A stretch of 64,000 bases of DNA from Microlunatus sp. Gsoil 973 (GTDB lineage: Bacteria > Actinomycetota > Actinomycetes > Propionibacteriales > Propionibacteriaceae): NCBI RefSeq assembly GCF_009707365.1, contig NZ_CP046122.1:3224001-3288000 (forward strand), read 5' to 3'. A program made the translations under genes and the position numbers. The first letter of the stretch is position 1. Each line of letters begins with the position of its first letter. Shown here piece after piece: positions 19,308 through 39,875 of the stretch. The notes below the pieces were generated by a model that did no database searches, had not been told where the DNA came from, and saw nothing but the letters and a program-made list of their open reading frames with translations.

Positions 19308-19350
19308 GAGCCACCTGTCGGAATCGAACCGACGACCTATTCATTACGAG
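19308..19350 (-). repeat. att core copy 1 (left end of the island)
   Basis: 43 bp identical to the 3' part of the tRNA-Thr gene at 39802-39844, from the anticodon loop to two bases beyond the 3' end. The 5' half of the tRNA is missing, so this is not a functional tRNA but the chromosomal junction left by integration. Identity with copy 2 extends 7 bases further left (19301-19307). Confidence 0.95.
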
Positions 19351-19446
19351 AGCCTCCGAGCGGCCGCGAACTGGGCTCTGACTGGAGAAAACACGTCCGG
19401 CTGAGTCTGTGGCCGTACGTCTGGTTTCGCGTGATGTCATTCCGTC

Positions 19447-19467
19447 GGGGACATCACGGGGACACGG
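19447..19467. repeat. Left arm-type repeat of element A
   Basis: Two direct copies of GGGGACA spaced 11 bp (GGGGACATCAC then GGGGACACGG), 96 bp inside att copy 1. The same double repeat occurs at 26049-26069 at the other end. In the circular form these would flank attP on both sides, which is where phage-type integrases bind arm sites. Confidence 0.65.
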
Positions 19468-19482
19468 CGAGCTCGCGAAGAT

Positions 19483-19602
19483 GATCTTGCGGCCGACCGG
19501 TAGTGGGGTGCGCGGAGGGCGAAGCCCGAAGCGCGGGGCCCCGCTGCCGGCCGGCCGTTTCGCGCGGAGCGCGCGCTCGAACCAGTAAAGAAAGTACTCC
19601 CG
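19483..19602. other. Candidate replication origin or cis-site of element A
   Basis: A GC-rich stretch with palindromes (GCGGGGCCCCGC, then GCGCG-GAG-CGCGC) followed by CCAGTAAAGAAAGTACTCCC. The same layout recurs in element B at 26489-26623, where the final 32 bp differ at only three positions. Hairpin plus conserved single-strand sequence suits a rolling-circle nick site, but a transfer or promoter site is equally possible. No gene is recognisable in 19351-20062. Confidence 0.45.
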
Positions 19603-20062
19603 AGATGCGGATGCCGCTCCCACCGTTGTTGCACATGCCGTCCGTTGACCGGGCCGCAGAGCCGGGCGGGTGATACGGCACACATCCCGTTGCGCGGCAC
19701 GAGTTGGGTCGAGGCTGACCCGGTGATGGAACCTCGAGCGGACACCGATGATCAGCGTCACCAACGGATCTATACACCGTGTGATCCCCGGCCCGGACCA
19801 GGTCGTTGACCTTCTGATCGCCGACCAGATGGGAACGGTGTTGGCCCTCGTAACAGGCATGATGATCACACCGTGCGACGCATTTGACGTGGCTCGGAAG
19901 CCGGATTTGGCCCATGGCTGGCGAGATCTCCGCCAAGTCCGCCAACCACGGTGCTCAGCCCGGTAGTGTCATGCCAACCACAGCTGTGGGAGAGAGATGG
20001 GCGCCTGGGTTCCATTTGAAGCAGTCGTCGCGACGTCGCACCGGGTCGAATAGTATGGCGGA

Positions 20063-20803
20063 GTGGCGCTCTCCGACCAGATGTTGTACGAAATGTTGGA
20101 TGCGCTGAACTCAGGATCGATGCCGGTAATCGGCCAGCACGACTGGACCAAACCCCTTCGAACCATGGACCTCGAGGCGCGGCTGGTCGTGATGGATGAT
20201 GGCGAACGAGCGGTCCGGCTCACTGGCCTCGTCGATCAGGACGACTGGGATTCTGCAGGACCGATCGGTGGCATGTCGTTCACCGCGATGGAGAAGATCG
20301 GCCATGCTGAGGGGTTGCACCCGGACCGGGAACCGATATCGCTGTCCGCCGATCACGGATGGTTCGACGACGACGCCATCGCCCAAGCGAGCACGATCAT
20401 GTCCCAAGTTGTCCCTGTTGATGGCAACCGCTTGCTCCAGTTCACCGCAATGGAGCTGGTTCGGGTCGTCATAGAGATCAGCTACAACACGCTGGTGCTT
20501 CTGGGCCCCAATCTGGCCTCGAGCGCCATCTGGGACGGCCTCAAGTACCTGCTGACGCACCGCAAGACCCGAGATGGGTGCGAGCACGCTCCCTCCAGGA
20601 TCGAAATCTCCACTGATCTTGGCTCAGGCAAGGTCGTGGGCATCATCGATACAGCTGACCCAAAGATCGCGCGAGCTGGCCTCAGGACATACCGGAAGGC
20701 AGTTGACACAGCCGGCCGGGTGGCCGGTGGTCGGAAGGTGATCATCTGGAAACCGGAGGACCAGGATGGTGTCTGGTCTGAGTTGGAGCCACCTCGGGAA
20801 TAG
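20063..20803 (+). CDS. Hypothetical protein, element A cargo
   Basis: A 246-residue soluble, acidic protein starting at GTG 20063. I recognise no family. It has no signal peptide or membrane helix. The middle holds LLQFTAMELVRVVIEISYNTLVLLGP, a hydrophobic helix region, and the end KVVGIIDTADPKIARAGLRTYRKA looks like a small alpha/beta element. GC content is lower than the flanking chromosome genes, consistent with transfer. It is convergent with the HIRAN gene, 14 bp away, and is absent from element B. Confidence 0.65.
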   Translation: MALSDQMLYEMLDALNSGSMPVIGQHDWTKPLRTMDLEARLVVMDDGERAVRLTGLVDQDDWDSAGPIGGMSFTAMEKIGHAEGLHPDREPISLSADHGWFDDDAIAQASTIMSQVVPVDGNRLLQFTAMELVRVVIEISYNTLVLLGPNLASSAIWDGLKYLLTHRKTRDGCEHAPSRIEISTDLGSGKVVGIIDTADPKIARAGLRTYRKAVDTAGRVAGGRKVIIWKPEDQDGVWSELEPPRE

Positions 20804-20817
20804 GACCTACGCGAGCA

Positions 20818-21768
20818 TCACAGCATCTCCGCCTCGGGAACCAGAATCGTCACCCTCGCTCGGATCATCCCTCCCTCGTCCTTCACCCACACCCTGGCCG
20901 CCCCCGCCACGAGTTTCCGATCGCGCGCCCACGCGAGCAGACGCTGGGAGTAGTCCACGGCCATGCTGGCGGGCACATATCCGACGACATGACCTTCGAT
21001 CACGACTGCTACAGCGTTCGGGTCGTGCTCATTCCACGGCTCCGGCACGAGGACGCAACGCTGGTCCTGCAGGGTTGTGCCCGCTGACGTGATCGGCATT
21101 CCCTTGTCCCGGAACAGCTTCCTAAAGCTCTTTGTGTGGTACGTCTCGCCGGTGACCTCGATCTGCTCGTCGAGCGGCACATCCGGCTCGATGACGGCCA
21201 TCTGTGCCAGGACGCCCTCGATGGTTGGTTTCGCGGGCGGGGCCGTCCTGGGCGGGATCGGCACGTCGGTTACGGGCGAGACGGTTTGCAACTGACTGCC
21301 AAGTGCCGGTTCTGCCGACATAGGCTGGGGTCGGACCTGGCTGGCCAGGAACTGCGCGAGCTGCTCGAAGCCTTGTCGGTCCTTACGTCTGAAGTGGGCG
21401 ATGAACTGTCGCCCGCCGGCGGTGAGGGTGAGCCGTCCGTTGGTCAGCATCGATGCTGGCGAGAAGTCCACACGCTCTAGATGTCTTAGCGGGATGATCG
21501 CGCTTGCCCCTGCTACATACGGGTTGCTGGCAGCCGCGGGGCCGATCCCGATCAAGGCTGTGCGCGCCATCGCATTCTTCGCGGTGATGATTACCGATCC
21601 GATATCGACCTCGACCGAGCACCCGTAGCCGTCCACCCCAGGAACGATGCCACCACTAGAGTCCGCGTGTCGGAAGAACTGGATAACAGTTTGATCTATT
21701 GGGGACCGATGCGCCAGCGATCCAGGCGATGCGGTTGTGTCTATCTGCCAATTCCGCGCATCGAGCAC
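20818..21768 (-). CDS. DUF4429-like plus HIRAN domain protein
   Basis: A 316-residue protein. Residues about 40-140 (SVEVDIGSVIITAKN .. IIPLRHLERVDF .. GRQFIAHFRRKDRQGFEQLAQFL) resemble the DUF4429/PH-like module. Residues about 205-290 resemble a HIRAN domain: EVTGETYHTKSFRKLF, then VLVPEPWNEHDPNAVAVVIEGHVVGYVP. HIRAN domains bind DNA ends or damaged and stalled DNA structures, often fused to helicases or nucleases; here none is fused. Free-standing HIRAN proteins occur in phages and mobile elements. Role unknown; defence or DNA repair is speculation. Confidence 0.7.
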   Translation of the reverse strand: MLDARNWQIDTTASPGSLAHRSPIDQTVIQFFRHADSSGGIVPGVDGYGCSVEVDIGSVIITAKNAMARTALIGIGPAAASNPYVAGASAIIPLRHLERVDFSPASMLTNGRLTLTAGGRQFIAHFRRKDRQGFEQLAQFLASQVRPQPMSAEPALGSQLQTVSPVTDVPIPPRTAPPAKPTIEGVLAQMAVIEPDVPLDEQIEVTGETYHTKSFRKLFRDKGMPITSAGTTLQDQRCVLVPEPWNEHDPNAVAVVIEGHVVGYVPASMAVDYSQRLLAWARDRKLVAGAARVWVKDEGGMIRARVTILVPEAEML

Positions 21769-22537: not shown

Positions 22538-22786
22538 GCGTTGACGTCTGGGATGAGGAGCCGCGGTGGGGGTAACAACCGTCGCCCCGGGCAGCTCGAC
22601 GATCATGCTGGCTGCTGCGGGTTGACCAATGTGCTGAGCAGTCACCCGTGAACCGACCGATCATCGGAACTCGCGACCTATTCACTGGGCACCACGCCTT
22701 CCCTCGAGGCCCGCCCGGGACCGGATCCCTCGGCGGGACACCTGGAGATGATGACTCGCGTCGTCGCCGGGTCGTACACTCGGGGC

Positions 22787-23041
22787 ATGGCACCTGAGGC
22801 TGCGGAACTGATCAAGGCCGGGTTAGCGCTCGACCCTGACGAGCGTGCCGTGGTGGCCAATCGCCTGTTGGCCAGCCTCCACGATGACCGTGGTGGCGAG
22901 GACCAGGTTGCGGTCGATGCCGCTTGGCGGGACGAGATCACGCGGCGTCTGGATGAGGTTCTGGACGGTTCGGTCACGCCGGTCGATGCTGATGAGCATT
23001 ACGCGCAGCTGCGGGGCCGGATCGCCGCCGGCACCGAGTGA
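22787..23041 (+). CDS. Antitoxin of a type II toxin-antitoxin pair
   Basis: An 84-residue acidic protein, MAPEAAELIKAGLALDPDERAVVANRLLASL, matching the 'addiction module component' antitoxin family (RelB/StbD-like), with the C-terminal half WRDEITRRLDEVLDGSVTPVDADEHYAQLR that should wrap the toxin. ATG 22787 fits the family start; longer versions to 22748 have no support. The stop overlaps the toxin start as GTGA, so the pair is translationally coupled. Confidence 0.85.
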   Translation: MAPEAAELIKAGLALDPDERAVVANRLLASLHDDRGGEDQVAVDAAWRDEITRRLDEVLDGSVTPVDADEHYAQLRGRIAAGTE

Positions 23042-23355
23042 CGACGCGGCAGCGGGAGCATCCTGCGGCGGTCGAGGAGTTCGACGCCGCAGTGCTGTGG
23101 TACGAGGATCGCGCGCCGGGGACCGGGCTGACTTTGATCGATCGGGCGGCGCAAGCCCGGGCTGACATTGGCGCGTGGCCGGAGGCTGCTCCGCTGTTCC
23201 CTGACTGGTCCGGACGTATCGTGGTGCGTGCGAAGGCGATCCGCGGCTTCCCCTACCGGATCGTGTATGTCGTGCACGACGACTCCGTGCTGATACTCGC
23301 CTATGCCCACGAGAAGCGTCGACCTGGCTATTGGGAAGACCGGCTCGACACCTGA
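23038..23355 (+). CDS. RelE/ParE-family toxin
   Basis: A 105-residue basic protein. HPAAVEEFDAAVLWYEDRAPGTGLTLID is the first helix pair of the RelE/ParE fold, and FPYRIVYVVHDDSVLILAYAHEKRRPGYW the terminal beta-hairpin with the YR..Y..H..R pattern. It is a probable ribosome-dependent mRNA interferase or gyrase poison; ParE versus RelE activity cannot be decided. It starts at GTG 23038, overlapping the antitoxin. As the only intact stability module in element A it may explain why the decayed element persists (inference). Confidence 0.85.
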   Translation: MTTRQREHPAAVEEFDAAVLWYEDRAPGTGLTLIDRAAQARADIGAWPEAAPLFPDWSGRIVVRAKAIRGFPYRIVYVVHDDSVLILAYAHEKRRPGYWEDRLDT

Positions 23356-23699: not shown

Positions 23700-24837
23700 T
23701 TGGGTGCTGAAACGCTCGTGCAGCCGACCGACCTCGCCCAGGACGACGCTCCGGTGGGCGCCTTCCCAGGCTTCAGCGACGACGCGCCACTTGATCTTGA
23801 TCATCTGTCGCCGGCTGCCGAACACGGGTTCTTGCGCCGGGTCACCGAGGGCAGCTTCTCCGCGTTCGCCGATACGGCGGCTGCGGTGGGCAACTGCGCT
23901 CGCCGATCCGGTTGGTCGGACGGTCCGACACCATTGATCCGGCGACCGGTGAGGTGTTGTCCTCGTACGCGTCGGACGATGCGCCGTTGGGTGTCTTGTA
24001 CCGGCCGTGTGGGAACCGGCGGGCCGACGTCTACCCGCCCTGCTCCCGGGTGTATGCCCGCGACACGTTCGAGATGATCAAGGCCGGCGTGGCCGGCGGC
24101 AAGACCGTCCCGGACACCGTCGCCGACAACCCGCTGTTGTCCGTCACTGTCACCGCTCCGTCGTTCGGTGTCGTGCACGGTGCGCGGAGTCGTCATGGCC
24201 GGCGGTCGGGTGGTCACTGCCGGCCGCGTTCGCACACGGTTGTTTGTGATCATGGTCGTCGGTTGTCGTGCATGGCCGTCCATGATCAACACGACGAGTT
24301 GAACGGTGTGCCGTTGTGCTCCGACTGCTACGACTGGTCCTCCGCAGTGGTCTGGCAGTGGTGGGCGCCGGAGTTGTTGCGCCGCACGCCGAACACCCTG
24401 CGCCGCAAGCTCGCGCAGCACCTAGAAACACCGGAAAGTCGGCTCGGTGACCTGGCGTCGGTGCAGTCGCCAAGGTGGCCGAGTACCAGGATCGCGGCCT
24501 GGTGCACTTCCACGCCCTGATCCGGGTCGACGGCTCCGACGGCCCGGGCAGCCCGTCCCCGGTGGACGGCGCCACCCTGGCCGAGCTGGTCGAGCAGACG
24601 GTCCGGTCGATCCAGCTCGTCGCACCCGCCGTAGGCGGGAATGATCATGATCGGATCGTCGCCTGGGGAGATCAACTCGACGTACGGATCGTTCGTGCCG
24701 GCGCCCGGACCGATGATCCGACCGGGCCGCTGACCGAAGCCCAGGTGGCTGCCCTTGACAACCAGGGTCAGAGCCAAACACTCAGCAGTCCGGGAAGGAC
24801 TGGCCCGGGCACCCAACGCAACCACAGGAGTAGTTGA
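23700..24837 (+). pseudogene. RepSA-like rolling-circle replication initiator, truncated and frameshifted
   Basis: Homologous along its length to the intact rep of element B. Segments in three frames: AFPGFSDDAPLDLDHL .. FADTAAAVG, then DPATGEVLSSYASDDAPLGVLYRPCGNRRADV .. WQWWAPELLRR, then AEYQDRGLVHFHALIRVDG with the HUH pair. Slips are near 23895 and at 24465 (one missing T after CAG). After DPTGPLTEAQVA the match stops; the intact protein continues YLAKYATK and about 150 more residues. The catalytic tyrosine region is therefore deleted, which no single sequencing error can explain. The start is probably TTG 23700 or just downstream. Confidence 0.85.
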
Positions 24838-24839
24838 TC

Positions 24840-25085
24840 ATGGAAGCTGCAGATGGATCGGAACGCGACGATCGCGACAACGGGCTGCATCGGGTCGCGT
24901 TCGAACGCCTGCTGAAGCCGAAGGAGGTCGCAGAGTTGTTCTCGCTCTCTGAGCCGACACTCGCCCGGTGGCGATCGGAGGGCAAGGGGCCGGTTTGGGT
25001 TCAGGTTGCGCACCGAGTGCCGCGATACCGGGTTCGTGATCTTGAAACCTGGGTCAGGTCGCACAAGCGGGGTGAGGCGGCATGA
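24840..25085 (+). CDS. Excisionase (Xis), MerR-like HTH
   Basis: An 81-residue DNA-binding protein with the winged-HTH of recombination directionality factors: LLKPKEVAELFSLSEPTLARWRSEGKGP .. PRYRVRDLETWVRSH. ATG 24840 has AGGAG upstream. The stop overlaps the int start as ATGA. The C-terminal PRYR..D.. pattern matches the element B excisionase. It appears intact, unlike its neighbours rep and int. Confidence 0.88.
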   Translation: MEAADGSERDDRDNGLHRVAFERLLKPKEVAELFSLSEPTLARWRSEGKGPVWVQVAHRVPRYRVRDLETWVRSHKRGEAA

Positions 25086-26120
25086 TCGGCAAGCTGCCGT
25101 CCGGCAAGTACCGGGTCCGGGTGAAGCATCGCGGCAAGGTGGTCGCCCCGAAGTCGTTCGTCCGGCTGCGTGATGCCCAGCGCTGGGAGGACGAACAGCG
25201 ACGGCGGATTGATCTTGGTGTGTGGGTCGATCCGCGCCGCGGTGAACGCCTGGTCGCCGACGTCGCATCCGAGTGGCTCGCGTCGCGGCGCGGGCAGGTC
25301 TCGTCGTCGACCTGGACGACGGACAAGCACTTCGTGACGCACCTGACGCCGACTCTGGGCAACCTGCCGATCGGCCAGGTGACGCGGGCTCGGGTCGAAT
25401 CGGCCCTGGGTGAGCTGATCAGTGCGGGTCGTGCTCGCTCGTCGGTTCAACGGTTGGCGGCGGTGTTGTCGGGGATCTTCGGCTACGCGGTGCGTGAACA
25501 GATCATCGTGTCCAATCCGTGCGCCGGCGTCCGGGTTCCACCGGGCGCGGGTAAGCCGCCGCGTTCGGTGTCGCCGTTGAGTCGAGACGAGTTGCATGAC
25601 GTGGTTGCCGCCCAGCGAGCGTTCTCCCTCAGCGGCGCCGCAGTGACGCTGTTCCTCGGGCTGACCGGGCTGCGCTGGGGCGAGTTGCGGTCGTTGCGGG
25701 TCGCGGACGTTCAGCAGGCGCCGGTTCCGGCCGTCCGGATATCGGTGTCACCTTCGGACGGTCACGCCGAGAAGGTGCCTAGGGGTCGGCGCCGCCGGTT
25801 GGTGCCGTTGGTGCCGGAGGCCTGGTCGATCGTGGAGCCGCTGCTCGACGGCCGGTCGCCGCGTGACTACGTCTTCACCTCGCCGCAGGGCGACCAGCTG
25901 AACGAGTCGAACTGGAAGCGGAGTGTCCGCTGGGAATCGACGGCGATGGGCGCAGAGTGCACGATCTTCGGCACACGTTCGCCAATCTGGTGCTGCAGGG
26001 CGGCCTCGACGTGAAGACGGTTCAGGCCTGGCGCGGCACCTGGCTGCCGGGGACACCACGGGGACACGGGCGGGTGCCGAGGCGGCTGATCGATCGGATG
26101 CTGATCGGCATTTGGCCTAG
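25082..26120 (+). pseudogene. Tyrosine integrase of element A, frameshifted and catalytically incomplete
   Basis: The N-terminal arm-binding region (GKLPSGKYRVRVKHRGKVVAPKSF) and core-binding domain are intact, and LGLTGLRWGELRSL holds catalytic Arg I. Near 25940-25945 the frame slips; the box VHDLRHTFANLVLQGGLDVKTVQAW continues in another frame. The box GHxSxxTTxxxY expected next is missing: the sequence jumps from QAW to RHLAAGDTTGTRAG, a deletion of roughly 40 bp, and no catalytic Tyr is found. The stop is TAG 26118-26120, 12 bp before att copy 2. Loss of the tyrosine makes it inactive whatever the status of the frameshift. Confidence 0.85.
26049..26069. repeat. Right arm-type repeat of element A
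   Basis: GGGGACACCAC followed by GGGGACACGG, the same 11-bp-period double repeat as at 19447-19467 with one mismatch. It lies inside the 3' end of int, 62 bp before att copy 2. Confidence 0.65.
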
Positions 26121-26131
26121 CCAGCACGCTG

Positions 26132-26174
26132 GAGCCACCTGTCGGAATCGAACCGACGACCTATTCATTACGAG
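26132..26174 (-). repeat. att core copy 2 (junction between elements A and B)
   Basis: 43 bp identical to copies 1 and 3. It is both the right end of element A and the left end of element B. Again only the tRNA 3' half is present. Seven more bases to the left (26125-26131) match copy 1 but not the intact tRNA gene, so these flanking bases travelled with the elements. Confidence 0.95.
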
Positions 26175-26247
26175 CGCGTCCTGGGCATTCGGTTGGGCGT
26201 CCGTAGCGGTCCGGGTGAGTGCACTGGTTGCGCGGTTTGATCAAGAA

Positions 26248-26267
26248 GGGGTGCGCCAGGGGTGCGC
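26248..26267. repeat. Left arm-type repeat of element B
   Basis: GGGGTGCGC twice with an 11-bp period (26248-26256 and 26259-26267), 73 bp inside att copy 2. The same double repeat is at 39697-39716 near the other end. Confidence 0.65.
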
Positions 26268-26488: not shown

Positions 26489-26623
26489 GATCTTGCGGGG
26501 TCGGGGCGTCCCTTCAGTTTGCCCGGGCGGGGTCCCGGGGTGCCGAGCGCAGCGAGGCGGGGCCCCGGGTGCCCCCGGGCGCGCGCCGAAGGCGCGCTTG
26601 AGCCAGTAAGGAAAGTACTCCCG
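26489..26623. other. Candidate replication origin or cis-site of element B
   Basis: Begins GATCTTGCGG like its element A counterpart, continues through GC-rich palindromes (GGGGCCCC), then a perfect hairpin GCGCGCC-GAA-GGCGCGC (26581-26597) running into CCAGTAAGGAAAGTACTCCC. Conservation between two otherwise different left ends argues for a shared function such as a Rep nick site. Confidence 0.45.
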
Positions 26624-27137
26624 GCAGCATCTCAGGCAGGTGTCTCAGGCGGGATGGGTCAGTCTGGCAGTAGCCCGGAGGGTCGGCCCGATGCTGCAAC
26701 TATCACCGGGAACAAACGCCTTGTTGGCGGCCGTGGCGCGATCCGTCAGCACAGCGGCCCGTCAACGTGGGATCCGCGGCGCTAGACGCGGCCCCAAACG
26801 AGGCAGAGGACATCGTCACGCCTGGCCACCATGTGCGACGTCGCAGAAAAGTGCCAAGAAGACAGCGGCTCGTACGCACGTTTTGCGGCCAATGGTAAGG
26901 AGCTTTTCCACCGGCTTCGGACTGCGAATTCCTTAGTTCGACGATATGAGCTGTGTTTTGACTCTAAGCTCCAAACTGTCATTTTCGATGGCTCAGATCT
27001 TTGGATCTCGGGTCGTGGGCGAGCCAGTCGGGCACACATCGGGCGCTTCGGTACTCGTGTCGCCGATCCCGGCCGCTGAGGGTGAAGGATTCCAAGACGG
27101 GTAGCGGGCTGAAGGCCGCGGAGCGGAGGGCAGGGTT
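26624..27137. other. Upstream region of the qat operon, no gene seen
   Basis: No recognisable gene. GC content falls around 26,860-26,990, unlike both the element backbone and the chromosome, and the lower GC continues into the Qat genes. The qat promoter should lie here, but I see no convincing -35/-10 pair. Confidence 0.5.
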
Positions 27138-31280: not shown

Positions 31281-31304
31281 AGTTGAACACGTTCTGCCTC
31301 TCAC

Positions 31305-32209: not shown

Positions 32210-32632
32210 TTACTGACCCCTGTCCGTAAGTCCCCAGGATCGGCGTCTGGCCAGCAAGTTGCGGAATATGGCCTGGAGTACGCAGAATTCGTTCCCCCAT
32301 GGGTCCCTGAGCACCCAGAAGTCAAAGCCGCGTTCCTGCTGATGATCCCACCGCCTTGCGCCTAGTCGCTCGAGCCTCTGAACCTCGGCTTCGACGTTGT
32401 CGGTCTCGATGTCGAGGTGCATTCGCTCCTTCTTGACCTTGGGATCATGAGTGAGCTGAAGCAGAATTCGGATGTCAGCGTCTGGCAGTCGAAGCTGGCG
32501 GTAGGTTCCGCTGCTCGCCTGTGGGAGGCGCTCCGGAGTCGCGTCGAGTGCGGCGGACCAGAAGGTAACGCCGTGATCCAAGTCGTCAACGTCGATGACG
32601 AACTGGCACAGACGGCTTCGGTGCCCGGTCAT
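32210..32632 (-). CDS. VOC-family protein paired with the XRE regulator
   Basis: A 140-residue glyoxalase-like protein: QFVIDVDDLDHGVTFWSAALDA, HLDIETDNVEAEVQRLERLGARRW, and FWVLRDPWGNEFCVLQ. ATG 32632 overlaps the XRE gene stop as ATGA, which defines the start and shows coupling. It belongs to the glyoxalase-like branch, as does the protein at 3395. Why such an enzyme is tied to the element's regulator is unknown; it could be a sensor or a detoxifying gene. Confidence 0.85.
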   Translation of the reverse strand: MTGHRSRLCQFVIDVDDLDHGVTFWSAALDATPERLPQASSGTYRQLRLPDADIRILLQLTHDPKVKKERMHLDIETDNVEAEVQRLERLGARRWDHQQERGFDFWVLRDPWGNEFCVLQAIFRNLLARRRSWGLTDRGQ

Positions 32633-33300
32633 GGAAGCGGCTTTCCAAGATCGATTAGGTTCTGAGCTACTGCGCCGGCTTCGGCCTCGGATCGGGCCAG
32701 GACTCCCCAGCCGGTGATGACGTCGCCGTCGTAGCTCATGCCGACCCAGCGGCCCCAGGCGAAGGTGCCATGGGGGTGAAGTGCGAGGTACATGGTGCCC
32801 TTGGATCGCACCGCAGCATCGGTCGAGCGGTACCAGCCCATCAGAGCTTCGTTGTCCCACAGCCGGAGTTCACCACGCCACTCATAGCTGCCGTCCTCAA
32901 CGGGACGGGCCCGCTGCGCGTCGAGGTAGAGCACATCGCCTTGCTGGGTGATCTCCAGATGATGGGTATCCACGCGTGGTTCGTTGTTCTTCGACGTCTG
33001 CCAAGACGCCCACCAGTCACCGGAGAAGTCGAGTTCGTAGTGGACCTGTCCGGCCAGCTGGGCAAGCGAGATTTGCAGGGCGTTCGCCAGGGCGACGGCC
33101 ACCGAGAGCACCGGCTGCTGCTCGCCGGCCTCATAGCGGGCCATCTGTCGCAGGCTGATCCCAGCGGCTTTCGCCAGCTGTGCTTGTGAGGTGCCGAGTG
33201 CTCGGCGTCTAGACCTGATGACATCGGATATGTCCACACAGTCATCATCCCGGACAGACCTGTCATCTTCCAAAGGTAACGATTGTGTCACATCCGTCAT
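32629..33300 (-). CDS. XRE-family regulator with a C-terminal ligand-type domain
   Basis: About 223 residues. SDVIRSRRRALGTSQAQLAKAAGISLRQMARYEAGEQQPVLSVAVALANAL is a Cro/C1-type HTH, followed by a beta-rich domain (YELDFSGDWWASWQTSKNN .. VLYLDAQRARPVEDGSYEWRGELRLW .. GTMYLALHPHGTFAWGRWVG) that I do not recognise but that looks like a binding barrel. Start ATG 33300 is preferred; a longer version from 33342 would run into an inverted repeat, and a GTG further in is possible. It diverges from the pra-like gene, so it is the best candidate for the element's maintenance repressor. Confidence 0.82.
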   Translation of the reverse strand: MTDVTQSLPLEDDRSVRDDDCVDISDVIRSRRRALGTSQAQLAKAAGISLRQMARYEAGEQQPVLSVAVALANALQISLAQLAGQVHYELDFSGDWWASWQTSKNNEPRVDTHHLEITQQGDVLYLDAQRARPVEDGSYEWRGELRLWDNEALMGWYRSTDAAVRSKGTMYLALHPHGTFAWGRWVGMSYDGDVITGWGVLARSEAEAGAVAQNLIDLGKPLP

Positions 33301-33321
33301 CTCATACGCCGTTTCAGTCTT

Positions 33322-33347
33322 GCTAGATGTCGTGGATGGCATCTAGC
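33322..33347. promoter_or_regulatory. Operator-like inverted repeat in the element B control region
   Basis: GCTAGATG and CATCTAGC form a perfect 8-bp inverted repeat with a 10-bp spacer, halfway between the XRE start (33300) and the pra-like start (33388). The 18-bp centre spacing suits a dimeric HTH protein. Binding by the XRE protein is inference. Confidence 0.65.
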
Positions 33348-33387
33348 GTGCCTAATAAGACAGATTCGATGCTTTAGGAGGCACGCC

Positions 33388-33825
33388 ATGGCACTGCAGA
33401 AGCGTTTCCAGGTTGCCCATGGGGATGTGTTCCCGATGGGTGCGTTTATGAAGGGCTCGGTGGAGCCGGTCTCGGATTTCGATGCTCCCGCTCGGCCGGA
33501 TGGGTCGCGTCCACAACAAGTCGACAAGGACACTGGTTTGCCGTTGTGGCAGGTAACGGTCTTGGATGCCGATGATCAGGCCACACGGCGGGACACCGCG
33601 GTGTCGGTGAAGATTGCCGCCCAGTATCAACCAGTGCCTCCGGACAACACGTCGGGCACCCCGTGGCGGCCGGTGGAGTTCGTCGGTCTGACTGCTTTGG
33701 CGTATGTCGATGATTCGGGGTCTCGGCCGCGGGTGGCGTGGTCGTTCCGGGCCGATGACCTGGTGGCTCCGGGCGAAGCAAAGAAGGCCGCCCCGTCGAC
33801 CAGCTCGGGTCCGAGGGCTGCCTGA
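33388..33825 (+). CDS. Pra-like activator of replication, integration and excision
   Basis: A 145-residue protein with the conserved pattern of this actinomycete family: FQVAHGDVFPMGAFMKGSVEPVSDFD, then QVDKDTGLPLWQVTVLDAD and SGTPWRPVEFVGLTALAYV. In pSAM2 of Streptomyces ambofaciens, Pra turns on the repSA-xis-int operon. Here it heads that operon instead of standing apart, which would couple its own synthesis to the genes it controls. TAGGAGG precedes ATG 33388. It has no HTH. Confidence 0.82.
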   Translation: MALQKRFQVAHGDVFPMGAFMKGSVEPVSDFDAPARPDGSRPQQVDKDTGLPLWQVTVLDADDQATRRDTAVSVKIAAQYQPVPPDNTSGTPWRPVEFVGLTALAYVDDSGSRPRVAWSFRADDLVAPGEAKKAAPSTSSGPRAA

Positions 33826-34196
33826 TGTTGTCGTGTAGCGAGGCGGCGGCCGTCACGGAGGCGGTGTTGCGTCGGGTGCCTGGCGTTGAGTTGTTGACGT
33901 TGTCGGTGGAGATGACCGGTGGTGCGCCACGGTTGCGGCTGCACGCTCGGGAGTGGGTCGGCGGCCAGCAGGTGGCGGTGGTGCTGGGCCTGGTCGAGGG
34001 TGACCGGCGGGACGGTGATCCGCTGTTTGACCGGAGCTGGTGGGTGTGGCGGAACTGGTCGGGTCCGGTGTTTGCCAGCTCGTCGCTGGGTTGGGTGCTA
34101 GTGGAGGTGACCGCTGGCCGTGTCCACTACCCGCCCGGGTTCGAACGCTCCCATGATCATCCTGTCGCGACGTCCGGGGCGGCGACCGGATCATGA
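33825..34196 (+). CDS. Small hypothetical protein of the transfer operon
   Basis: A 123-residue protein without a recognised family. It is rich in Trp (SWWVWRNWSGPVFASSSLGWV) and Val, and looks beta-rich and soluble. It overlaps pra by one base (TGATG) and the translocase by four. Position suggests a partner in transfer or regulation. Confidence 0.75.
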   Translation: MLSCSEAAAVTEAVLRRVPGVELLTLSVEMTGGAPRLRLHAREWVGGQQVAVVLGLVEGDRRDGDPLFDRSWWVWRNWSGPVFASSSLGWVLVEVTAGRVHYPPGFERSHDHPVATSGAATGS

Positions 34197-35665
34197 TCAC
34201 CGCACCGGGCGCACGGTGGCAGTCCGCGTTTCGGTGGCTGGCCGGCTGGCTATGGCACTGCCGGATCTGGCTGGCCGTCTGGCTGGCCGCAGGACTGGTG
34301 ACCTGGGTCTCTGACACCCGCGCGATCATCGCGGTCGGGATCGCCTGTTTAGGTTTGCTGCCTGGTGTGGCTGGTGGGGTCTGGGTCGGCTTGTGGCCCG
34401 GTTCGTTCGAACGGTGGGCGGCCGGGCCGTGGCGGCGGTATCGGTGGCGGCGGCTGATGAGCCGGCGGTGGCAGTCGATGTGCCGCAATGCGCGGCTGGC
34501 CGAACGCCAGGTGATCAACCGCCGGAACCTGCAAGGTGACCGGCAGTCGGTCGAGACCTGGCGGTGCCCGCGCTTGCAGCAGGTTCGGACGTCGAGTCAT
34601 GCGGTGGAGTTGATCATCCGCGCCCGGCCCGGTCAGACCGTGGCCGAACTAGAGGCCGGGGTAGAGCGGATCGCCTCGACCTTGGATGCCGTCGCGTTTC
34701 GGTCTTGGCCGGTATCCGGGTCGGTGATCACCGCCGAGTTGATCATGACCGATCTCCTGACCACCCCGGTCAACGCGTCCATGCCGGAGGCGGTGCTGGT
34801 GGATGGGGTGCGGCTGGGCAGAGCGCAGTCGGGTCGGGATTGGTGGTTGCCGATCACCGGCCGTCACACCCTCTGCGTTGGTTGCTCCGGCTCGGGCAAG
34901 GGCTCGATCCTGTGGGGCATCTGCGCCGGACTCTCCCCCGCCGTCCACGCCGACGCCGTGCGGTTGTGGGGTGTCGACCTAAAGGCCGGCGTCGAGCTGG
35001 CGATGGGCCGAAACGTGTTCTCGGCCTTTGCCAAGACACCTGACAACGCCCTCCGACTCCTGACCGTTCTAGGGGGAATCTTGCAACAGCGCGGGGAGTC
35101 CATGGCCGGATCGGTGCGGCAACATCAAGCGCGGCCCGGTGACCCGTTGCACGTGTTGGTGATTGACGAGCTGGCCGCCCTGACCGCGTACGCACCATCG
35201 GAGATTCGGCGAGATGCGGAGCGGCTGTTGTCGTTGATCTTGACCCAGGGTCGCGCCCTCGGCGTCGTCGTGGTGGCCTTCGTGCAGGATCCCCGTAAGG
35301 AAATCGTGGCCATGCGCGGCCTGTTCACCCAAACCATCGCGCTGCGGCTCCGGTCGCGCGAGGAAACCGTCATGGTCCTCGGCGAAGGCATGACCCAACG
35401 GGCACCGGCCCACCGCATCAGCCCGGCCGGACCGGGCACCGGCTGGCTAGTCGAAGAAACCGGCCAAGTCGACCGAGTCCGTGCCGACTACTGGCCCGAC
35501 CCCCTGATCCGCCAGGTCGTCCACCACTACCCTGCCCGCGCCGTGGTGGACCTGCCACCCGACGAGAACACCGAAACCCTGGCCGGAGATCCGGCATTGG
35601 GCGGTACGGGTCGATCCGGGCGGCGACCCCGCGCGCCAAGGCAGACGTCGAGGCGTGCGATATGA
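34193..35665 (+). CDS. TraB/FtsK-like DNA translocase for conjugation
   Basis: A 490-residue membrane-anchored motor. Two N-terminal membrane helices (residues about 25-70) precede a FtsK/SpoIIIE ATPase domain with Walker A VGCSGSGKGS (K236) and Walker B LHVLVIDELAAL (D325). In AICE-type elements such a single hexameric translocase moves double-stranded DNA between mycelial cells. No gamma DNA-reading domain is visible at the C-terminus, only a short basic tail. It overlaps both neighbours by four bases. Confidence 0.9.
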   Translation: MITAPGARWQSAFRWLAGWLWHCRIWLAVWLAAGLVTWVSDTRAIIAVGIACLGLLPGVAGGVWVGLWPGSFERWAAGPWRRYRWRRLMSRRWQSMCRNARLAERQVINRRNLQGDRQSVETWRCPRLQQVRTSSHAVELIIRARPGQTVAELEAGVERIASTLDAVAFRSWPVSGSVITAELIMTDLLTTPVNASMPEAVLVDGVRLGRAQSGRDWWLPITGRHTLCVGCSGSGKGSILWGICAGLSPAVHADAVRLWGVDLKAGVELAMGRNVFSAFAKTPDNALRLLTVLGGILQQRGESMAGSVRQHQARPGDPLHVLVIDELAALTAYAPSEIRRDAERLLSLILTQGRALGVVVVAFVQDPRKEIVAMRGLFTQTIALRLRSREETVMVLGEGMTQRAPAHRISPAGPGTGWLVEETGQVDRVRADYWPDPLIRQVVHHYPARAVVDLPPDENTETLAGDPALGGTGRSGRRPRAPRQTSRRAI

Positions 35666-36651
35666 GCGGACGGCCGGTGGAGTGGGTGGATGCGGCCCCG
35701 GTTCGAGAGCATGTCCGCCGGCTGTTGGATGCCGGGTTGACCAAGCCCCAGATCGGTCGCCGTAGTGGGATCGCACCGAACACGATCACCGCCCTCATGG
35801 AGGGTGTGCACGGTCGCGGACCGTCGCTGCGGGTCCGCCGGACCACGGCTGGGCAATTGCTCGCCGTCGAGCCGGAGCTGGTCGGACCGGAAGACGGTGG
35901 CTGGGTCGACCCGATCGGCACCATGCGCCGGTTGCGGTCCCTGGTGGCGTTGGGCTGGCTGGTCAAAGTGTTGGCACAAAAGTCGGCGCTGCCCGCCAAC
36001 ACGTTCTGGCCGATCTTGGATGAGCGGGCCACCGTGATCCGGGTCGGCACCCGGGACCGGGTGATCAGCCTGTACGAGCAGCTAACCCGACAGCCGGCCC
36101 CGCCGCCCTCCATGGGTTCCACCTGGGCGCGGAACCGCGCGGCACGGCGGGCCTGGCCGCTGCCCTGTGTCTGGTCCGGGAACGGGATCGACGCCCCCGA
36201 CGCCCGCCCGGTCGACGCCCATTATCCGAAGGCGACTCCCGGCTCGCAGAGTTTCCGTGTCTTGATCGCGCCTGAAACGGTGCGGCAATGGGCTGCGGTC
36301 GTGGAACACATGTTGGACGACGACCCCGGCCTGTCGACTGCTCAAGTGGCCGCTCGATTCGACCGTGCGGCCAGCACCATATCGGCCGCGTTGCGCCGGG
36401 CAGGCCGCCCCGACCTGCGGGACCGGCTGGCCGCCAACGGCGTTCGCCGCCAACTTCACGACGACGCCCGGCGACGGGTCGACCAGGTCGAGGACCTCCT
36501 GGTCATCGAGCCCGATCTCACGCTGGCCGAAGCCCGGGATCGACTCGGCCGTGACCGGTTGGCCGAGGAACTGGCCGCAGCTGGCCGGGCGGATCTGCGC
36601 GGCCGGTTGATGCGGAACACGACCCGCCAGAAGTATCGGGAGACGCGATGA
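35662..36651 (+). CDS. HTH DNA-binding protein of the element backbone
   Basis: A 329-residue basic protein. APVREHVRRLLDAGLTKPQIGRRSGIAPNTITALMEG is an N-terminal HTH of a type common in actinophage and actinobacterial element proteins. A second HTH-like segment, LSTAQVAARFDRAASTISAALRRAGRPDL, lies near residues 220-250, and a third repeat-like stretch (DLTLAEARDRLGRDRLAEELAAAGRADLRGRL) follows. Two or three DNA-binding modules in one chain would allow binding to repeated sites. Function unknown; ATGA overlap with both neighbours. Confidence 0.7.
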   Translation: MSGRPVEWVDAAPVREHVRRLLDAGLTKPQIGRRSGIAPNTITALMEGVHGRGPSLRVRRTTAGQLLAVEPELVGPEDGGWVDPIGTMRRLRSLVALGWLVKVLAQKSALPANTFWPILDERATVIRVGTRDRVISLYEQLTRQPAPPPSMGSTWARNRAARRAWPLPCVWSGNGIDAPDARPVDAHYPKATPGSQSFRVLIAPETVRQWAAVVEHMLDDDPGLSTAQVAARFDRAASTISAALRRAGRPDLRDRLAANGVRRQLHDDARRRVDQVEDLLVIEPDLTLAEARDRLGRDRLAEELAAAGRADLRGRLMRNTTRQKYRETR

Positions 36652-36917
36652 CAGCGCTGATCGGGCTCGGCTGGATGGATGAGGCCGCCTGTCTCACCGT
36701 GCCCGAGCTGCCCTGGATTGGCCCCCGACGCGGCCAGCCGCTCGACCCCGGCGCGCTGGAGCAAATGACCCAGACATGTGATCACTGTCCTGTCCTGAAC
36801 CAGTGCCGCCACTACGTCGATCAGGCCGCTGTGTCGGCCGGCTTCTGGGCCGGTGCCTGGCGACACCTCAGCCCCGACGCCCGGGTCGAAGATGCTGCCG
36901 GTGGTCAAGTGGCATGA
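36648..36917 (+). CDS. WhiB-like iron-sulfur regulator
   Basis: An 89-residue Wbl protein. The four cluster cysteines are present: DEAACL (C15), then TCDHCPVLNQCRHYV (C44, C47, C53). SAGFWAGAWR replaces the usual G[VI]WGG turn motif. The C-terminal basic DNA-binding tail is very short. Such truncated Wbl proteins are frequent in actinophages and mobile elements, where they can interfere with host sigma-factor contacts. Coupled by 4-base overlaps to the HTH gene and rep. Confidence 0.88.
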   Translation: MTALIGLGWMDEAACLTVPELPWIGPRRGQPLDPGALEQMTQTCDHCPVLNQCRHYVDQAAVSAGFWAGAWRHLSPDARVEDAAGGQVA

Positions 36918-38449
36918 CCACCACCGGGTTCACCGACACGCCAGCCCGTGAGTTTCACGGGTCCGGGTTTCCGGGGTTCAGCGAGGACGTGCCACTGGAC
37001 CTGTCCGGGATCACCGAAGGCGCGGAGCGGGCACTCCTGGCCCGGCTGATCGACCGGACATTCGCCGACTTTGCCGACACCGCGGCCGCGGTCGGCTACT
37101 GCTCGCACCCGATCCGACTTGTCGGCCACTCCCAGACCGTAGACCCGGGCACCGGGGAAATCCTGTCCAGCTTCTCCTCGTCCGACGCGCCGCTAGGGGT
37201 GTTGTATCGGCCCTGCGGCAACCGGCGCGCCGACGTCTGCCCAGCCTGCTCCCGCGTCTACGCCCGCGACACCTTCGCCATGATCAAAGCCGGACTCACC
37301 GGCGGCAAAACCATCCCCGACACCGTCGGAGAGAACCCGCTGCTCTTCACCACCCTCACCGGACCATCCTTCGGCCCCGTGCACGGCCCTCGGAGCCGCA
37401 ATGGGCAGAAGATCGGCGGCAGGTGCCGACCACGCGACAAACCCCTGGTCTGCGCGCACGGCCGCCCGGTCGGCTGCATGTCCATCCACAATGATCACGA
37501 TCCGCGCAACGGGGCCCCGCTGTGCGACGACTGCTACCAATGGGAATCGGCCGTGGTCTGGCAATGGTGGGCACCCGAGCTGTGGCGGCGGACCACCACT
37601 GCAATCCGCCGCGCGATCGCCGTCCGCCTCGGCCTGGCCGAACACCAGCTGCGCCAGGTCGCCAGAGTCGAGTTCGCCAAAGTCGCCGAATATCAGGTCC
37701 GTGGCCTGGTCCACTTCCACGCCCTGATCCGCCTCGACGGACCCGACGGTCCCGGCTCCCCGGCACCGCTCGACGGCGAACACCTCGCTGCCTGCGTCCG
37801 TGACGCGGTGTCCGGGATGATCATCGAAGCACCGCCCGTCGATGATCACGACCAGACGCGGATCCTTGCCTGGGGAACCGAGCTGGACGTCAAGGTGGTC
37901 CGCGACGGCAACCGGACCGACGACCCAGACCGACCGCTGACACCCGAACAGGTCGCCGGATACCTGGCGAAATACGCGACCAAAGACGCCAACAGCATCC
38001 GCCCCGTTGCTCGGCCGCCGGCGCACCTAGCCCGGCTCGAATCAACCGCTCGGGATCTTGGACAGCGGGCAGTCCGGACCGACCCCGCCTCGCCGTACCG
38101 GCTGCTCCGCAAATGGGCGCACATGCTCGGATTCCGCGGCCACTTCTCCACCAAATCCCGGCGCTACTCGATCACCCTGGGACGGCTTCGCCGGGCGCGG
38201 CACCGTTACCGGCAACTCGTCGCCCAGGCCGCCCGCACCGGGGAGCCGGTCGACGTTCGGCAGATCGAGGACCAGCTCCTGGCCGACGACGCCGCGACCA
38301 CGTTGGTCATCGGCTCCTGGCACTACCAGGGGACCGGCTGGACGAACCCTGGCGACGAAGCACTCGCCACCGCGGCGGCGGCTCGGGCACGGGAGTACGC
38401 AGCTTGGCGGGCGGCACAACAGCAGACGGGAACCGAGCGGAAAGGGTGA
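36914..38449 (+). CDS. RepSA-like HUH replication initiator
   Basis: A 511-residue rolling-circle initiator of the actinomycete Rep_SA type. Zinc-finger-like cysteines lie at CGNRRADVCPAC (101-112) and CDDC (204-207). The HUH motif is LVHFHALIRLDG (H267, H269), and the catalytic tyrosine motif is AGYLAKYATKD (Y350 or Y354). It starts at ATG 36914, overlapping the WhiB-like stop. It ends 3 bp before xis. The element A copy lacks everything from the tyrosine motif on. Confidence 0.92.
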   Translation: MTTTGFTDTPAREFHGSGFPGFSEDVPLDLSGITEGAERALLARLIDRTFADFADTAAAVGYCSHPIRLVGHSQTVDPGTGEILSSFSSSDAPLGVLYRPCGNRRADVCPACSRVYARDTFAMIKAGLTGGKTIPDTVGENPLLFTTLTGPSFGPVHGPRSRNGQKIGGRCRPRDKPLVCAHGRPVGCMSIHNDHDPRNGAPLCDDCYQWESAVVWQWWAPELWRRTTTAIRRAIAVRLGLAEHQLRQVARVEFAKVAEYQVRGLVHFHALIRLDGPDGPGSPAPLDGEHLAACVRDAVSGMIIEAPPVDDHDQTRILAWGTELDVKVVRDGNRTDDPDRPLTPEQVAGYLAKYATKDANSIRPVARPPAHLARLESTARDLGQRAVRTDPASPYRLLRKWAHMLGFRGHFSTKSRRYSITLGRLRRARHRYRQLVAQAARTGEPVDVRQIEDQLLADDAATTLVIGSWHYQGTGWTNPGDEALATAAAARAREYAAWRAAQQQTGTERKG

Positions 38450-38452
38450 GAC

Positions 38453-38659
38453 ATGGAACGGATCGAAGCGGCAGATGATGAGTTGCTGCCGATGATGATG
38501 ACGTCGGCCGAGGTTGCGCGGGCGTTGAAGGTTGCGCCGTCGACCCTGTGTCGCTGGCGAGCCCGCGGGATCGGACCTCGGGTGTTCTGGCTTGGCGATG
38601 CCTCGCCACGCTATCGGCGTACGGACGTCCTGGCCTGGCTGGAACGGGTGGCGTCATGA
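38453..38659 (+). CDS. Excisionase (Xis), MerR-like HTH
   Basis: A 68-residue protein: MMMTSAEVARALKVAPSTLCRWRARGIGP .. PRYRRTDVLAWLERV. It is the recombination directionality factor that would tilt the integrase towards excision. The stop overlaps the integrase ATG as ATGA. Its wing sequence differs from the element A protein, in line with the different arm repeats of the two elements. Confidence 0.9.
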   Translation: MERIEAADDELLPMMMTSAEVARALKVAPSTLCRWRARGIGPRVFWLGDASPRYRRTDVLAWLERVAS

Positions 38660-39729
38660 CGATCCGGAAGACACCGAATGGGCGGTGGCGCGCACAGCTG
38701 AAGTCGGGTCGGACCCAGATCGCTTCCAAGACCTTCGACACGCGCCGGGAGGCGGTCGGGTGGTTGAACCGGGAGCGAGCGGGCCTCGCGGGTGGTGTGG
38801 ACCCGCGAGCTGGCCGGGAGTTGGTGAAGCATGCGATGCCCAGGTGGTTGGCCACCCGGAGGGTGACGGTGTCGAAGAATACCCATCGGATTGATGAGGA
38901 TCTGGTGCGGGTGCTGCCGAAGAGCCTGGCGGCGCGTGAACTCGGAACGGTGTCCGACCGGGAGATTGCCAGATGTTTCGAGTCGTGGCTGGCGGTCGGC
39001 CTCTCGGAAAAATCAGCGACCCGTTACCGGGCCAGCCTCTCGGTGTTCTTCGGGTGGTGCGTACGGGAGCGGCTGATTCTGGCCAACCCGGTCATTGGCG
39101 TCAGGGTGCCGAAACAATCGGTCGAACCGGTGGAGATGCTGCCGTTCACCGAAGACGAGCTCGAGGCGGCCTATCTGCGCTGGAAGGGCGAGAACGCGCG
39201 GCTGGCTGACATCTTGCTCGTCTTGGGTTGGACCGGGTTGCGTTGGAGTGAGGTTCGCGCTGTGACCGTGCGGGACCTGATGCAGGTTCCGACCCCTGGT
39301 TTGGTTATCCGGCGGGCAGCTCCGGAGGGCGTCGGCACCAAGTCCACGAAGGGTCGACGGTCGCGACGCGTTCCGCTCGCGGATCGGGTGCTGCCGATCG
39401 TCCTCGACCTGGCGGAGGGCCGGAAGCCGAATGATCTGCTGTTCACGACCGACCGTGGTGCGCAGCTGCACAGGACGCCGGTTCTGAGGTCGGTGAATTG
39501 GTCCACGACCAGCGATGGGCGCCGTATCCACGATCTGCGGCACACGGCGGCATGCCTTTGGTTGGCCCGAGGTGTCGACCCCGGAACGGTCCAGGCGTGG
39601 ATGGGCCACGAGTCGATTGCGACCACGAATCTCTACCTGCATTTCCTGGGCACGAGTGCCGATTCCGCGGGCCTTGAGAAGCTCAATTTCCGGCATGGGG
39701 TGCGCCCGGGGTGCGCGGAGGAGGTTTGA
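38656..39729 (+). CDS. Tyrosine integrase of element B
   Basis: A 357-residue site-specific recombinase with all catalytic residues: R196 (GWTGLRWSEV), H292 and R295 (RIHDLRHTAA), H318 (WMGHES) and Y327 (TTNLYLHFL). The N-terminal arm-binding domain starts IRKTPNGRWRAQLKSGRTQIASKTF. The gene ends 73 bp before the tRNA-Thr core, the usual place for AICE integrases. The right arm repeats lie inside its last codons. ATG 38656 is fixed by the ATGA overlap with xis. Confidence 0.95.
   Translation: MTIRKTPNGRWRAQLKSGRTQIASKTFDTRREAVGWLNRERAGLAGGVDPRAGRELVKHAMPRWLATRRVTVSKNTHRIDEDLVRVLPKSLAARELGTVSDREIARCFESWLAVGLSEKSATRYRASLSVFFGWCVRERLILANPVIGVRVPKQSVEPVEMLPFTEDELEAAYLRWKGENARLADILLVLGWTGLRWSEVRAVTVRDLMQVPTPGLVIRRAAPEGVGTKSTKGRRSRRVPLADRVLPIVLDLAEGRKPNDLLFTTDRGAQLHRTPVLRSVNWSTTSDGRRIHDLRHTAACLWLARGVDPGTVQAWMGHESIATTNLYLHFLGTSADSAGLEKLNFRHGVRPGCAEEV
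39697..39716. repeat. Right arm-type repeat of element B
   Basis: GGGGTGCGC at 39697-39705 and again at 39708-39716, 11-bp period, 86 bp left of att copy 3 and inside the 3' end of int. Same orientation as the left pair at 26248-26267. Confidence 0.65.
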
Positions 39730-39801
39730 CCTGTCCGATCCTCGCTGCGGGCTTCGAACGGTCTAGGCGGTTTCCCTTGGAGGTAAGGGGTTCCGCCATC
39801 C

Positions 39802-39844
39802 GAGCCACCTGTCGGAATCGAACCGACGACCTATTCATTACGAG
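39802..39844 (-). repeat. att core copy 3, within the intact tRNA-Thr gene
   Basis: The reference copy of the 43-bp core. It covers the tRNA from the anticodon loop (CTCG) to two bases past the 3' end. Integration to its left restored a complete tRNA. Confidence 0.95.
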
Positions 39845-39875
39845 TGAATCGCTCTACCGACTGAGCTAAGGTGGC
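39803..39875 (-). tRNA. tRNA-Thr (anticodon CGU)
   Basis: A full cloverleaf on the minus strand: acceptor GCCACCT/AGGTGGC, D-arm GCTC..GAGC, anticodon stem ATTCA/TGAAT with loop CTCGTAA (anticodon CGT), T-arm GTCGG-TTCGATT-CCGAC, discriminator T. CCA is not encoded. It reads ACG codons. Its 3' half is the integration site of the two elements. Confidence 0.95.

What the first reader, a model, noticed from the sequence alone, without database searches (positions are those of the whole stretch)
19308..39875. Two AICE-like elements inserted in tandem at one tRNA-Thr gene
A 43-bp core of tRNA-Thr(CGU) occurs three times in direct orientation (19308, 26132, 39802) and only the last belongs to a full tRNA. 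Each interval ends rep-xis-int-att. This is an accretion array: the right element keeps the tRNA whole while an older, decayed element is trapped on its left. Excision through copies 1 and 3 would remove both together.
Basis: partly seen in the sequence, partly recalled or inferred. Interest (0 to 1): 0.85.

Follow-up and report, generated by a model that had tools for sequence, protein, structure and literature searches.

The report
Stacked mobile elements at one tRNA
Two plasmid-like mobile elements sit one behind the other at a single tRNA gene of what is probably an actinobacterium: one looks worn out, the other looks complete and carries a set of anti-virus genes, a known kind of arrangement seen here in clear form.

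Summary
A 43-bp 3' part of tRNA-Thr(CGU) occurs three times in direct orientation at 19308, 26132 and 39802; only the last is in a whole tRNA. Left element A (19308-26174) is a defective AICE: its RepSA match lies in three frames and lacks the C-terminus, its integrase changes frame and has no catalytic tyrosine in any frame, and no TraB was found. Right element B (26132-39844) looks complete: TraB/FtsK, RepSA, Xis, integrase. A and B each have their own tandem repeats, probably integrase arm sites, matched between their two ends. These support the boundaries and speak against A+B excision through copies 1 and 3. Among same-genus genomes, G010 has an independent tandem pair at the orthologous tRNA, G003 a single sibling of B with Lamassu-type genes, and G012 one copy only. 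Tandem AICEs with a remnant are published (PMC3218068, PMC9513070): a new member of a known kind. Three of five elements compared at this tRNA carry a recognised anti-phage system.

The parts
39802..39875 (-). tRNA-Thr(CGU), intact; its 3' 43 bases (39802-39844) are att copy 3
26132..26174 (+). att copy 2 (shares 50 bp, 26125-26174, with copy 1); junction of A and B
19308..19350 (+). att copy 1 (50-bp match 19301-19350 with copy 2); outer end of A
19446..19465 (+). A-type tandem repeat, left end of A (11-bp period), probable integrase arm site
   Evidence: not listed by the repeat finder at 9 nt
26048..26067 (+). A-type tandem repeat, right end of A
26248..26267 (+). B-type tandem repeat, left end of B, probable integrase arm site
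39697..39716 (+). B-type tandem repeat, right end of B (inside the 3' end of int)
19533..19602 (+). conserved int-distal block of A (80% to part of the block of B)
20063..20803 (+). A: ORF of unknown function, 246 aa
   Evidence: no NCBIfam, Pfam or PADLOC match at 0.001
20818..21768 (-). A: HIRAN-domain protein, 316 aa
   Evidence: Pfam HIRAN 2.7e-6; weak PADLOC PDC-M03B 6.6e-5 over the same part
22748..23041 (+). A: antitoxin-type protein (Unstab_antitox)
   Evidence: Pfam 6.6e-11
23038..23355 (+). A: ORF of 105 aa overlapping the antitoxin gene; RelE/ParE-like by position and look only (recalled; no library match)
23727..24750 (+). A: RepSA remnant, three pieces in three frames; last 163 of 548 residues (numbered on RepSA of B) without match
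24834..25085 (+). A: Xis-like HTH_17 protein, 83 aa
   Evidence: Pfam HTH_17 2.8e-8
25082..26025 (+). A: tyrosine integrase, broken (frame change within 25918-25951; no tyrosine codon in any frame from 25942 to the att core)
26500..26640 (+). B: conserved int-distal block; 20-bp motif at 26605-26624
27138..29183 (+). B: QatA, KAP NTPase, 681 aa
   Evidence: Pfam KAP_NTPase 5.7e-60; PADLOC QatA 1.2e-136
29122..29988 (+). B: QatB, 288 aa (start uncertain)
   Evidence: PADLOC QatB 6.2e-32
29985..31280 (+). B: QatC, QueC-like, 431 aa
   Evidence: PADLOC QatC 7.3e-95; Pfam QueC 6.7e-4, below cut-off
31305..32087 (+). B: QatD, TatD nuclease, 260 aa
   Evidence: Pfam TatD_DNase 3.2e-46; PADLOC QatD 2.9e-89
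32210..32860 (-). B: glyoxalase-domain protein
   Evidence: Pfam Glyoxalase_6 5e-23
32629..33342 (-). B: XRE-type (HTH_3) regulator (start uncertain; as listed it overlaps its neighbours)
   Evidence: Pfam HTH_3 2.5e-11
33283..33825 (+). B: protein without family match; its DNA is 73% identical over 438 bp in the sibling element of G003
33825..34196 (+). B: ORF of unknown function, 123 aa
   Evidence: no Pfam or PADLOC match
34193..35665 (+). B: TraB/FtsK-type transfer ATPase, 490 aa, Walker A motif present
   Evidence: Pfam FtsK_SpoIIIE 2.2e-7; motif; 65% to the G003 element; also PADLOC mad8 2.4e-11
35662..36651 (+). B: HTH protein, 329 aa
   Evidence: Pfam HTH_23 3.6e-7
36648..36917 (+). 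B: WhiB-like regulator, 89 aa
   Evidence: Pfam Whib 4.2e-6
36803..38449 (+). B: RepSA replication initiator, 548 aa (start uncertain)
   Evidence: Pfam RepSA 5.9e-148
38453..38659 (+). B: Xis-like HTH_17 protein, 68 aa
   Evidence: Pfam HTH_17 1.8e-8; located
38656..39729 (+). B: tyrosine integrase, 357 aa; HDLRHT box at 292, tyrosine at about 327
   Evidence: Pfam Phage_integrase 1.3e-18; sequence and motif places

Best explanation
[quoted passage not shown] Each integrase recombined its circular element with the 43-bp tRNA end, leaving core 1 - A - core 2 - B - core 3 + rest of the tRNA. Shown by sequence: the map, the gene content, the element-specific repeats and the lesions in A. Inferred: A can no longer excise, replicate or transfer by itself. 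B can excise through copies 2 and 3, replicate by RepSA, move as double-stranded DNA by TraB, and bring the Qat anti-phage system to its next host. When B leaves, copy 2 is joined to the tRNA 5' part, so the tRNA stays whole and A stays in place. Removal of A+B through copies 1 and 3 should be rare, because IntB has no cognate arm repeat at copy 1 (that the repeats are arm sites is itself an inference).
For: Exact copies and one tRNA. AICE genes of B in the usual order. Broken rep and int, and no TraB match, in A. Repeats match within A and within B (19 of 20 bases each) and not across A/B (13 of 20); 100 shuffled pairs gave at most 16. The B left end at copy 2 is matched by the outer end of a sole-occupant relative in G003 (78% over 391 bp), which sets that boundary independently. 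G012 has one core copy, a whole tRNA-Thr and no RepSA match. G010 has three copies of its own core, two RepSA, two TraB and two integrase matches at the orthologous tRNA. Right flanks match in 3 of 3 comparisons of the window with G010, G003 and G012.
Against: No excision or transfer was observed; everything on mobility is inferred. No genome with the same left flank and no insert was found: 6 of 6 left-flank pairings showed no tblastx match above 80 bits, so the exact empty site is not reconstructed. G+C does not set A and B (64.9% each) apart from the left flank (64.8%). The order of arrival is not fixed by the map. PMC9513070 suggests that an intact element's integrase can mobilise a tandem AICE-DAICE as one (passage).
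Confidence: 0.9

Rival explanations
1. The array behaves as one composite element: IntB recombines copies 1 and 3 and carries A along (cis-mobilisation of a defective partner).
For: The geometry allows it. Joint excision of a tandem AICE pair was detected by nested PCR in Frankia EAN1pec (PMC3218068, passage), and cis-mobilisation of AICE plus defective AICE is proposed in PMC9513070 (passage).
Against: The flanks of copies 1 and 3 share no 9-mer while those of copies 2 and 3 do. The Frankia pair is said to have closely related integrases; IntA and IntB are 36% identical.
Confidence: 0.2
2. A arrived after B, into the outer core copy of a resident B, and then decayed.
For: The final map is the same. 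tRNA remnants can serve as AICE sites (PMC3218068, passage).
Against: A is broken in rep and int and lacks tra while B looks intact, which is simpler if A is older. This is indirect.
Confidence: 0.2
3. Tandem duplication of one element followed by divergence, or a mis-assembly.
For: Both intervals end in rep-xis-int-att.
Against: Integrases are 36% identical, RepSA pieces 54-65%, and repeats and cargo differ. The genome is one contig, and an independent tandem pair exists in G010.
Confidence: 0.02
4. The A interval is not a former AICE but an unrelated integrated island.
For: No TraB match, and several inner genes of unknown type.
Against: RepSA remnant (Pfam RepSA 3.1e-66 and 2.1e-22), Xis-like and integrase genes in AICE order beside the att site, and the conserved int-distal block shared with other RepSA elements.
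Confidence: 0.06

Closest known systems
Frankia EAN1pec Fean5518/Fean5534 and Streptomyces avermitilis Sav3708/Sav3728 (PMC3218068, passages)
   Same: Two AICEs in tandem at one tRNA gene; the Sav pair has integrases of different subfamilies, as here.
   Different: tRNA-Lys and tRNA-Arg instead of tRNA-Thr. The passages read do not describe either pair as half broken. Joint and separate excision was shown for the Frankia pair; nothing is measured here.
AICE/DAICE accretion at tRNA-Arg in a Streptomyces population (PMC9513070, passages)
   Same: Several elements with different integrases between identical direct repeats, with an outer remnant devoid of traB. Nearly the same picture.
   Different: Different host and tRNA. 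The passages read mention restriction-modification and AIPR phage resistance as cargo, not Qat, Lamassu or retrons (supplement not seen).
pSAM2-type AICEs (RepSA, Xis, Int, TraB)
   Same: B has the RepSA-Xis-Int order and a TraB/FtsK gene.
   Different: No NUDIX (Pif-type) match among the B proteins scanned with Pfam. Integration gene is tRNA-Thr (pSAM2's own is recalled to be tRNA-Pro).
Qat (QatABCD) anti-phage system
   Same: All four genes in order, each with a PADLOC match.
   Different: Carried on an AICE. The closest of 16 loci found (L051, Nocardioidaceae MAG, 81% QatA) shows no match to TraB, RepSA or Int of B in the 18.7 kb held; the other 15 loci were not examined.

Membership tests
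AICE (element B) | Tyrosine (or serine) integrase next to one att site | tested here: met
   Int 38656-39729, att 39802
AICE (element B) | FtsK/TraB-type transfer gene | tested here: met
   34193-35665, Pfam FtsK_SpoIIIE above cut-off, Walker A
AICE (element B) | Replication gene (here RepSA) | tested here: met
   RepSA 5.9e-148
AICE (element B) | Direct repeats from the tRNA 3' end at both ends | tested here: met
AICE (element B) | Excises, replicates and transfers as double-stranded DNA | not testable with these tools
   needs junction PCR and mating
AICE (element A) | Integrase, rep and tra together | tested here: not met
   int and rep broken, no match to TraB of B or of G003. Filed as an AICE remnant only.
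AICE (element A) | att repeats at both ends | tested here: met
   element-specific repeats
Qat system | QatA, QatB, QatC, QatD in one gene cluster | tested here: met
Qat system | Protects against phages | not testable with these tools
   needs a phage challenge assay
Accretion array | Different elements with one site specificity inserted side by side | tested here: met

The most novel reading that the evidence does not exclude
The tRNA-Thr(CGU) site of this genus is a stackable immune locus. AICEs with one core specificity but different integrase arm codes pile up there, and because each integrase reads only its own arms, the elements can come and go separately. Each brings a different anti-phage system into the same slot next to the outer att site: Qat in B, Lamassu-type genes in the G003 sibling, a type VII-like retron in the outer element of G010.
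Probability: 0.3. Interest if true: 0.6.

Novelty: new member of a known kind. Interest (0 to 1): 0.42.

Why it matters
The array is a clean natural case of element stacking at a tRNA gene, with one element dying and one apparently alive. The paired repeats give a direct way to tell which ends belong together and to predict which circles can form. The siblings suggest that small conjugative elements of actinobacteria swap whole anti-phage systems at one chromosomal site, which bears on how defence islands are built.

Tried and rejected
Tandem duplication was rejected (integrases 36% identical, different repeats and cargo). Mis-assembly was judged unlikely (single contig; independent tandem pair in G010). 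Foreign base composition: no contrast with the left flank, so of no use. Empty-site comparison by left flank failed: the 708 bp left of copy 1 matched only G000 itself among 20 genomes, and none of 6 left-flank pairings matched by tblastx above 80 bits. A single-strand fold of the int-distal block was not remarkable (z -1.26; 24 of 200 shuffles fold as well). No Rfam family but tRNA reached its threshold in 19000-40200. G006 has a RepSA element next to its tRNA-Thr, but no second core copy was found in the 19.9 kb read, so it was left out of the comparison of ends. G004 could not be judged because its contig ends 83 bp beyond the tRNA match; G078 (another genus, one core copy on a 7.9-kb contig) and G164 (two mismatches) were not followed. 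In one search, four of the seven fetched integrase relatives (L074, L075, L078, L079) gave wrong-frame ORFs and were not used. In some searches, IntB and also L077 align in the first frame of int A across a stop as far as 26056, but not to the tyrosine. Host naming failed: no call names the host of G000; an actinobacterium is my inference. Literature searches: of the listings in 45, 60 and 61, no title or abstract start is about Qat on an AICE; this is no proof that none is in print.
Full report
Observation. The window lies at 3224001-3288000 of a single 4.91-Mb contig. The 43-bp 3' part of tRNA-Thr(CGU) is present at 19308, 26132 and 39802, exact and in direct orientation; copies 1 and 2 also share the 7 bp to their left. 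One tRNA is found in the window, 39802-39875 minus. Only the last copy is part of a whole tRNA. A search of the own genome with the tRNA region found these three places and one 80% match elsewhere.

Element B, 26132-39844. In order: QatA, QatB, QatC, QatD (PADLOC matches for all four; Pfam KAP, TatD and a sub-threshold QueC); a glyoxalase-domain gene and an XRE-type regulator on the other strand; two small ORFs without family match; an FtsK/TraB-type ATPase with a Walker A motif; an HTH protein; a WhiB-like protein; RepSA (5.9e-148); a Xis-like HTH_17 protein; and a 357-aa tyrosine integrase with its HDLRHT box and catalytic-region tyrosine (box assignment by eye). This meets the int + tra + rep rule used for AICEs in PMC3218068 (passage).

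Element A, 19308-26174. RepSA matches lie in three different frames and stop at residue 385 of 548, counted on RepSA of B. The Xis-like gene is open. The integrase changes frame before the HDLRHT box, and from 25942 to the att core no frame holds a tyrosine codon. TraB of B and of G003 find nothing in A at E 0.001. A keeps an antitoxin-type gene with a small overlapping ORF, a HIRAN-domain gene (with a weak match to a candidate defence model, PDC-M03B) and ORFs of unknown function. A is therefore an AICE remnant, not an AICE by the rule above.

Boundaries and repeats. Near each end of A and B lies a tandem repeat with an 11-bp period: A-type at 19446 and 26048, B-type at 26248 and 39697. With up to two mismatches, the A pattern and the B pattern are each found exactly twice in the window, against 0.01 and 0.08 expected from shuffles; the patterns were taken from the sequence itself, so these expectations are not a blind test. 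I compared the two ends of five elements at this tRNA: A, B, two in G010, one in G003. Best 20-base matches within an element are 19, 19, 18 (outer G010), 19 (inner G010) and 16 (G003). Between elements they are at most 14, except A against the inner G010 element (17 and 18). Shuffled pairs gave at most 16 in 100, so the G003 pair is not beyond shuffling by itself. The exception fits the integrases: A and inner G010 have the highest identity of the ten pairs (40%), though by bit score A-B is slightly higher (160 against 154) and A-G010 is higher (172.5 against 161.3). Reading these repeats as integrase arm sites is an inference from the general layout of tyrosine-integrase att sites (recalled), not a test.

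Excision. Copy 2 has A-type repeats on its left and B-type on its right; copy 1 has only A-type; copy 3 only B-type. The flanks of copies 2 and 3 share repeat words, those of copies 1 and 3 no 9-mer. So B alone is the expected circle, if any. Tandem AICEs in Frankia excise both separately and together (PMC3218068, passage), but their integrases are described as closely related.

Relatives. Of 20 genomes of the genus (G000 included), 19 had some match to the tRNA plus right flank, many of them weak or to the tRNA alone. The 43-bp core with up to 2 mismatches is in 6 of 198 genomes of the family, G000 included. RepSA matches in 12 of 20 genomes of the genus. G012 has one core copy, a whole tRNA-Thr and no RepSA match. 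G003 has two copies 15 kb apart around one element. Its outer end is 78% identical to the B left end over 391 bp, with a further 125 bp at 89%, and its transfer-replication region is 70% identical to that of B over 4 kb. Its integrase shows no significant similarity to IntB (21%, E 0.06). In place of Qat it carries genes that match LmuA and LmuB of Lamassu in PADLOC (6.6e-53 and 7.2e-112); Pfam labels them as an ABC-three-component domain (CTD7) and DUF3732, and I did not look for LmuC. G010 has three copies of its own tRNA core at about 5227393, 5246146 and 5258725, with two RepSA, two TraB and two integrase matches. Its outer element carries a reverse transcriptase closest to retron type VII-A2 (2e-58) with a DUF3800_VII match next to it (3.4e-7). 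Its inner element gave only weak matches, to HTH_VI, RmrA and PD-T4-9_C models. So 3 of 5 elements compared carry a recognised anti-phage system, and in these three it lies between the outer att site and the transfer genes. The PADLOC scans of G010 covered 20 of the 29 ORFs listed. No control with AICEs at other sites was run.

Flanks. Right of the tRNA, the window matches G010, G003 and G012 (3 of 3). Left of the outer copy, none of the 6 pairings of these four genomes match above 80 bits. The downstream side of this tRNA is thus variable in the genus, which fits an insertion hot spot, but it prevents a strict empty-site comparison.

Qat mobility. The Qat block (window 27061-32032) is 76-81% identical to a stretch of a Nocardioidaceae MAG contig (L051) in which TraB, RepSA and Int of B find nothing. 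This suggests that the cassette moves between contexts.

What is known. Tandem AICEs, and accretion with an outer remnant devoid of traB, are published (PMC3218068 and PMC9513070, passages). PMC11706625 (passages) reports a nuclease family found in AICEs and near anti-phage systems, also with HIRAN genes. The finding is a new member of a known kind. What I add is the element-specific repeats and the anti-phage cargo at one site.

Noticed in passing
26500-26640 (motif 26605-26624) and 19533-19602: A conserved block at the int-distal end. Of its 9 matches in 20 genomes of the genus, 7 lie on the same contig within about 12 kb of a RepSA gene or remnant (4 in G000, one each in G003, G004, G008); the others are in G018 (RepSA on another contig) and G005 (weak match, no RepSA found). 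Its exact 20-bp motif is in 4 of 195 family genomes, all of this genus, and in one of the four G000 places. It could be a transfer or replication locus (guess).
   Followed up: partly
L084:15383-17402 (G010): Outer AICE of the G010 tandem pair carries a type VII-like retron (RT plus DUF3800_VII).
   Followed up: partly
L029:13890-17515 (G003): Sibling of B at the same tRNA carries LmuA and LmuB matches where B has Qat.
   Followed up: partly
L029:11654-12328 (G003): A 224-aa ORF of the G003 element looks like a DEDD exonuclease (by eye, not searched); PMC11706625 describes such nucleases in AICEs.
   Followed up: no
G000:C1:4368733-4370055, 303225-303680, 109852-110686: Further RepSA genes or remnants in the same genome; the first two have the conserved block nearby.
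   Followed up: no
19301-19350 and 26125-26174; G003 att sites (L029, L030): The att identity runs beyond the tRNA end by 7 bp in A; the two G003 att copies look alike for about 20 bp beyond it (by eye); 0 bp in B. Perhaps a trace of earlier excision from a related host.
   Followed up: no
8932-18701: Left flank holds nitroreductase-like, PPDK-like, universal-stress-like, DoxX-like and glycosyl-hydrolase-like genes close together, reminiscent of a dormancy gene set (by eye, recalled, not searched).
   Followed up: no
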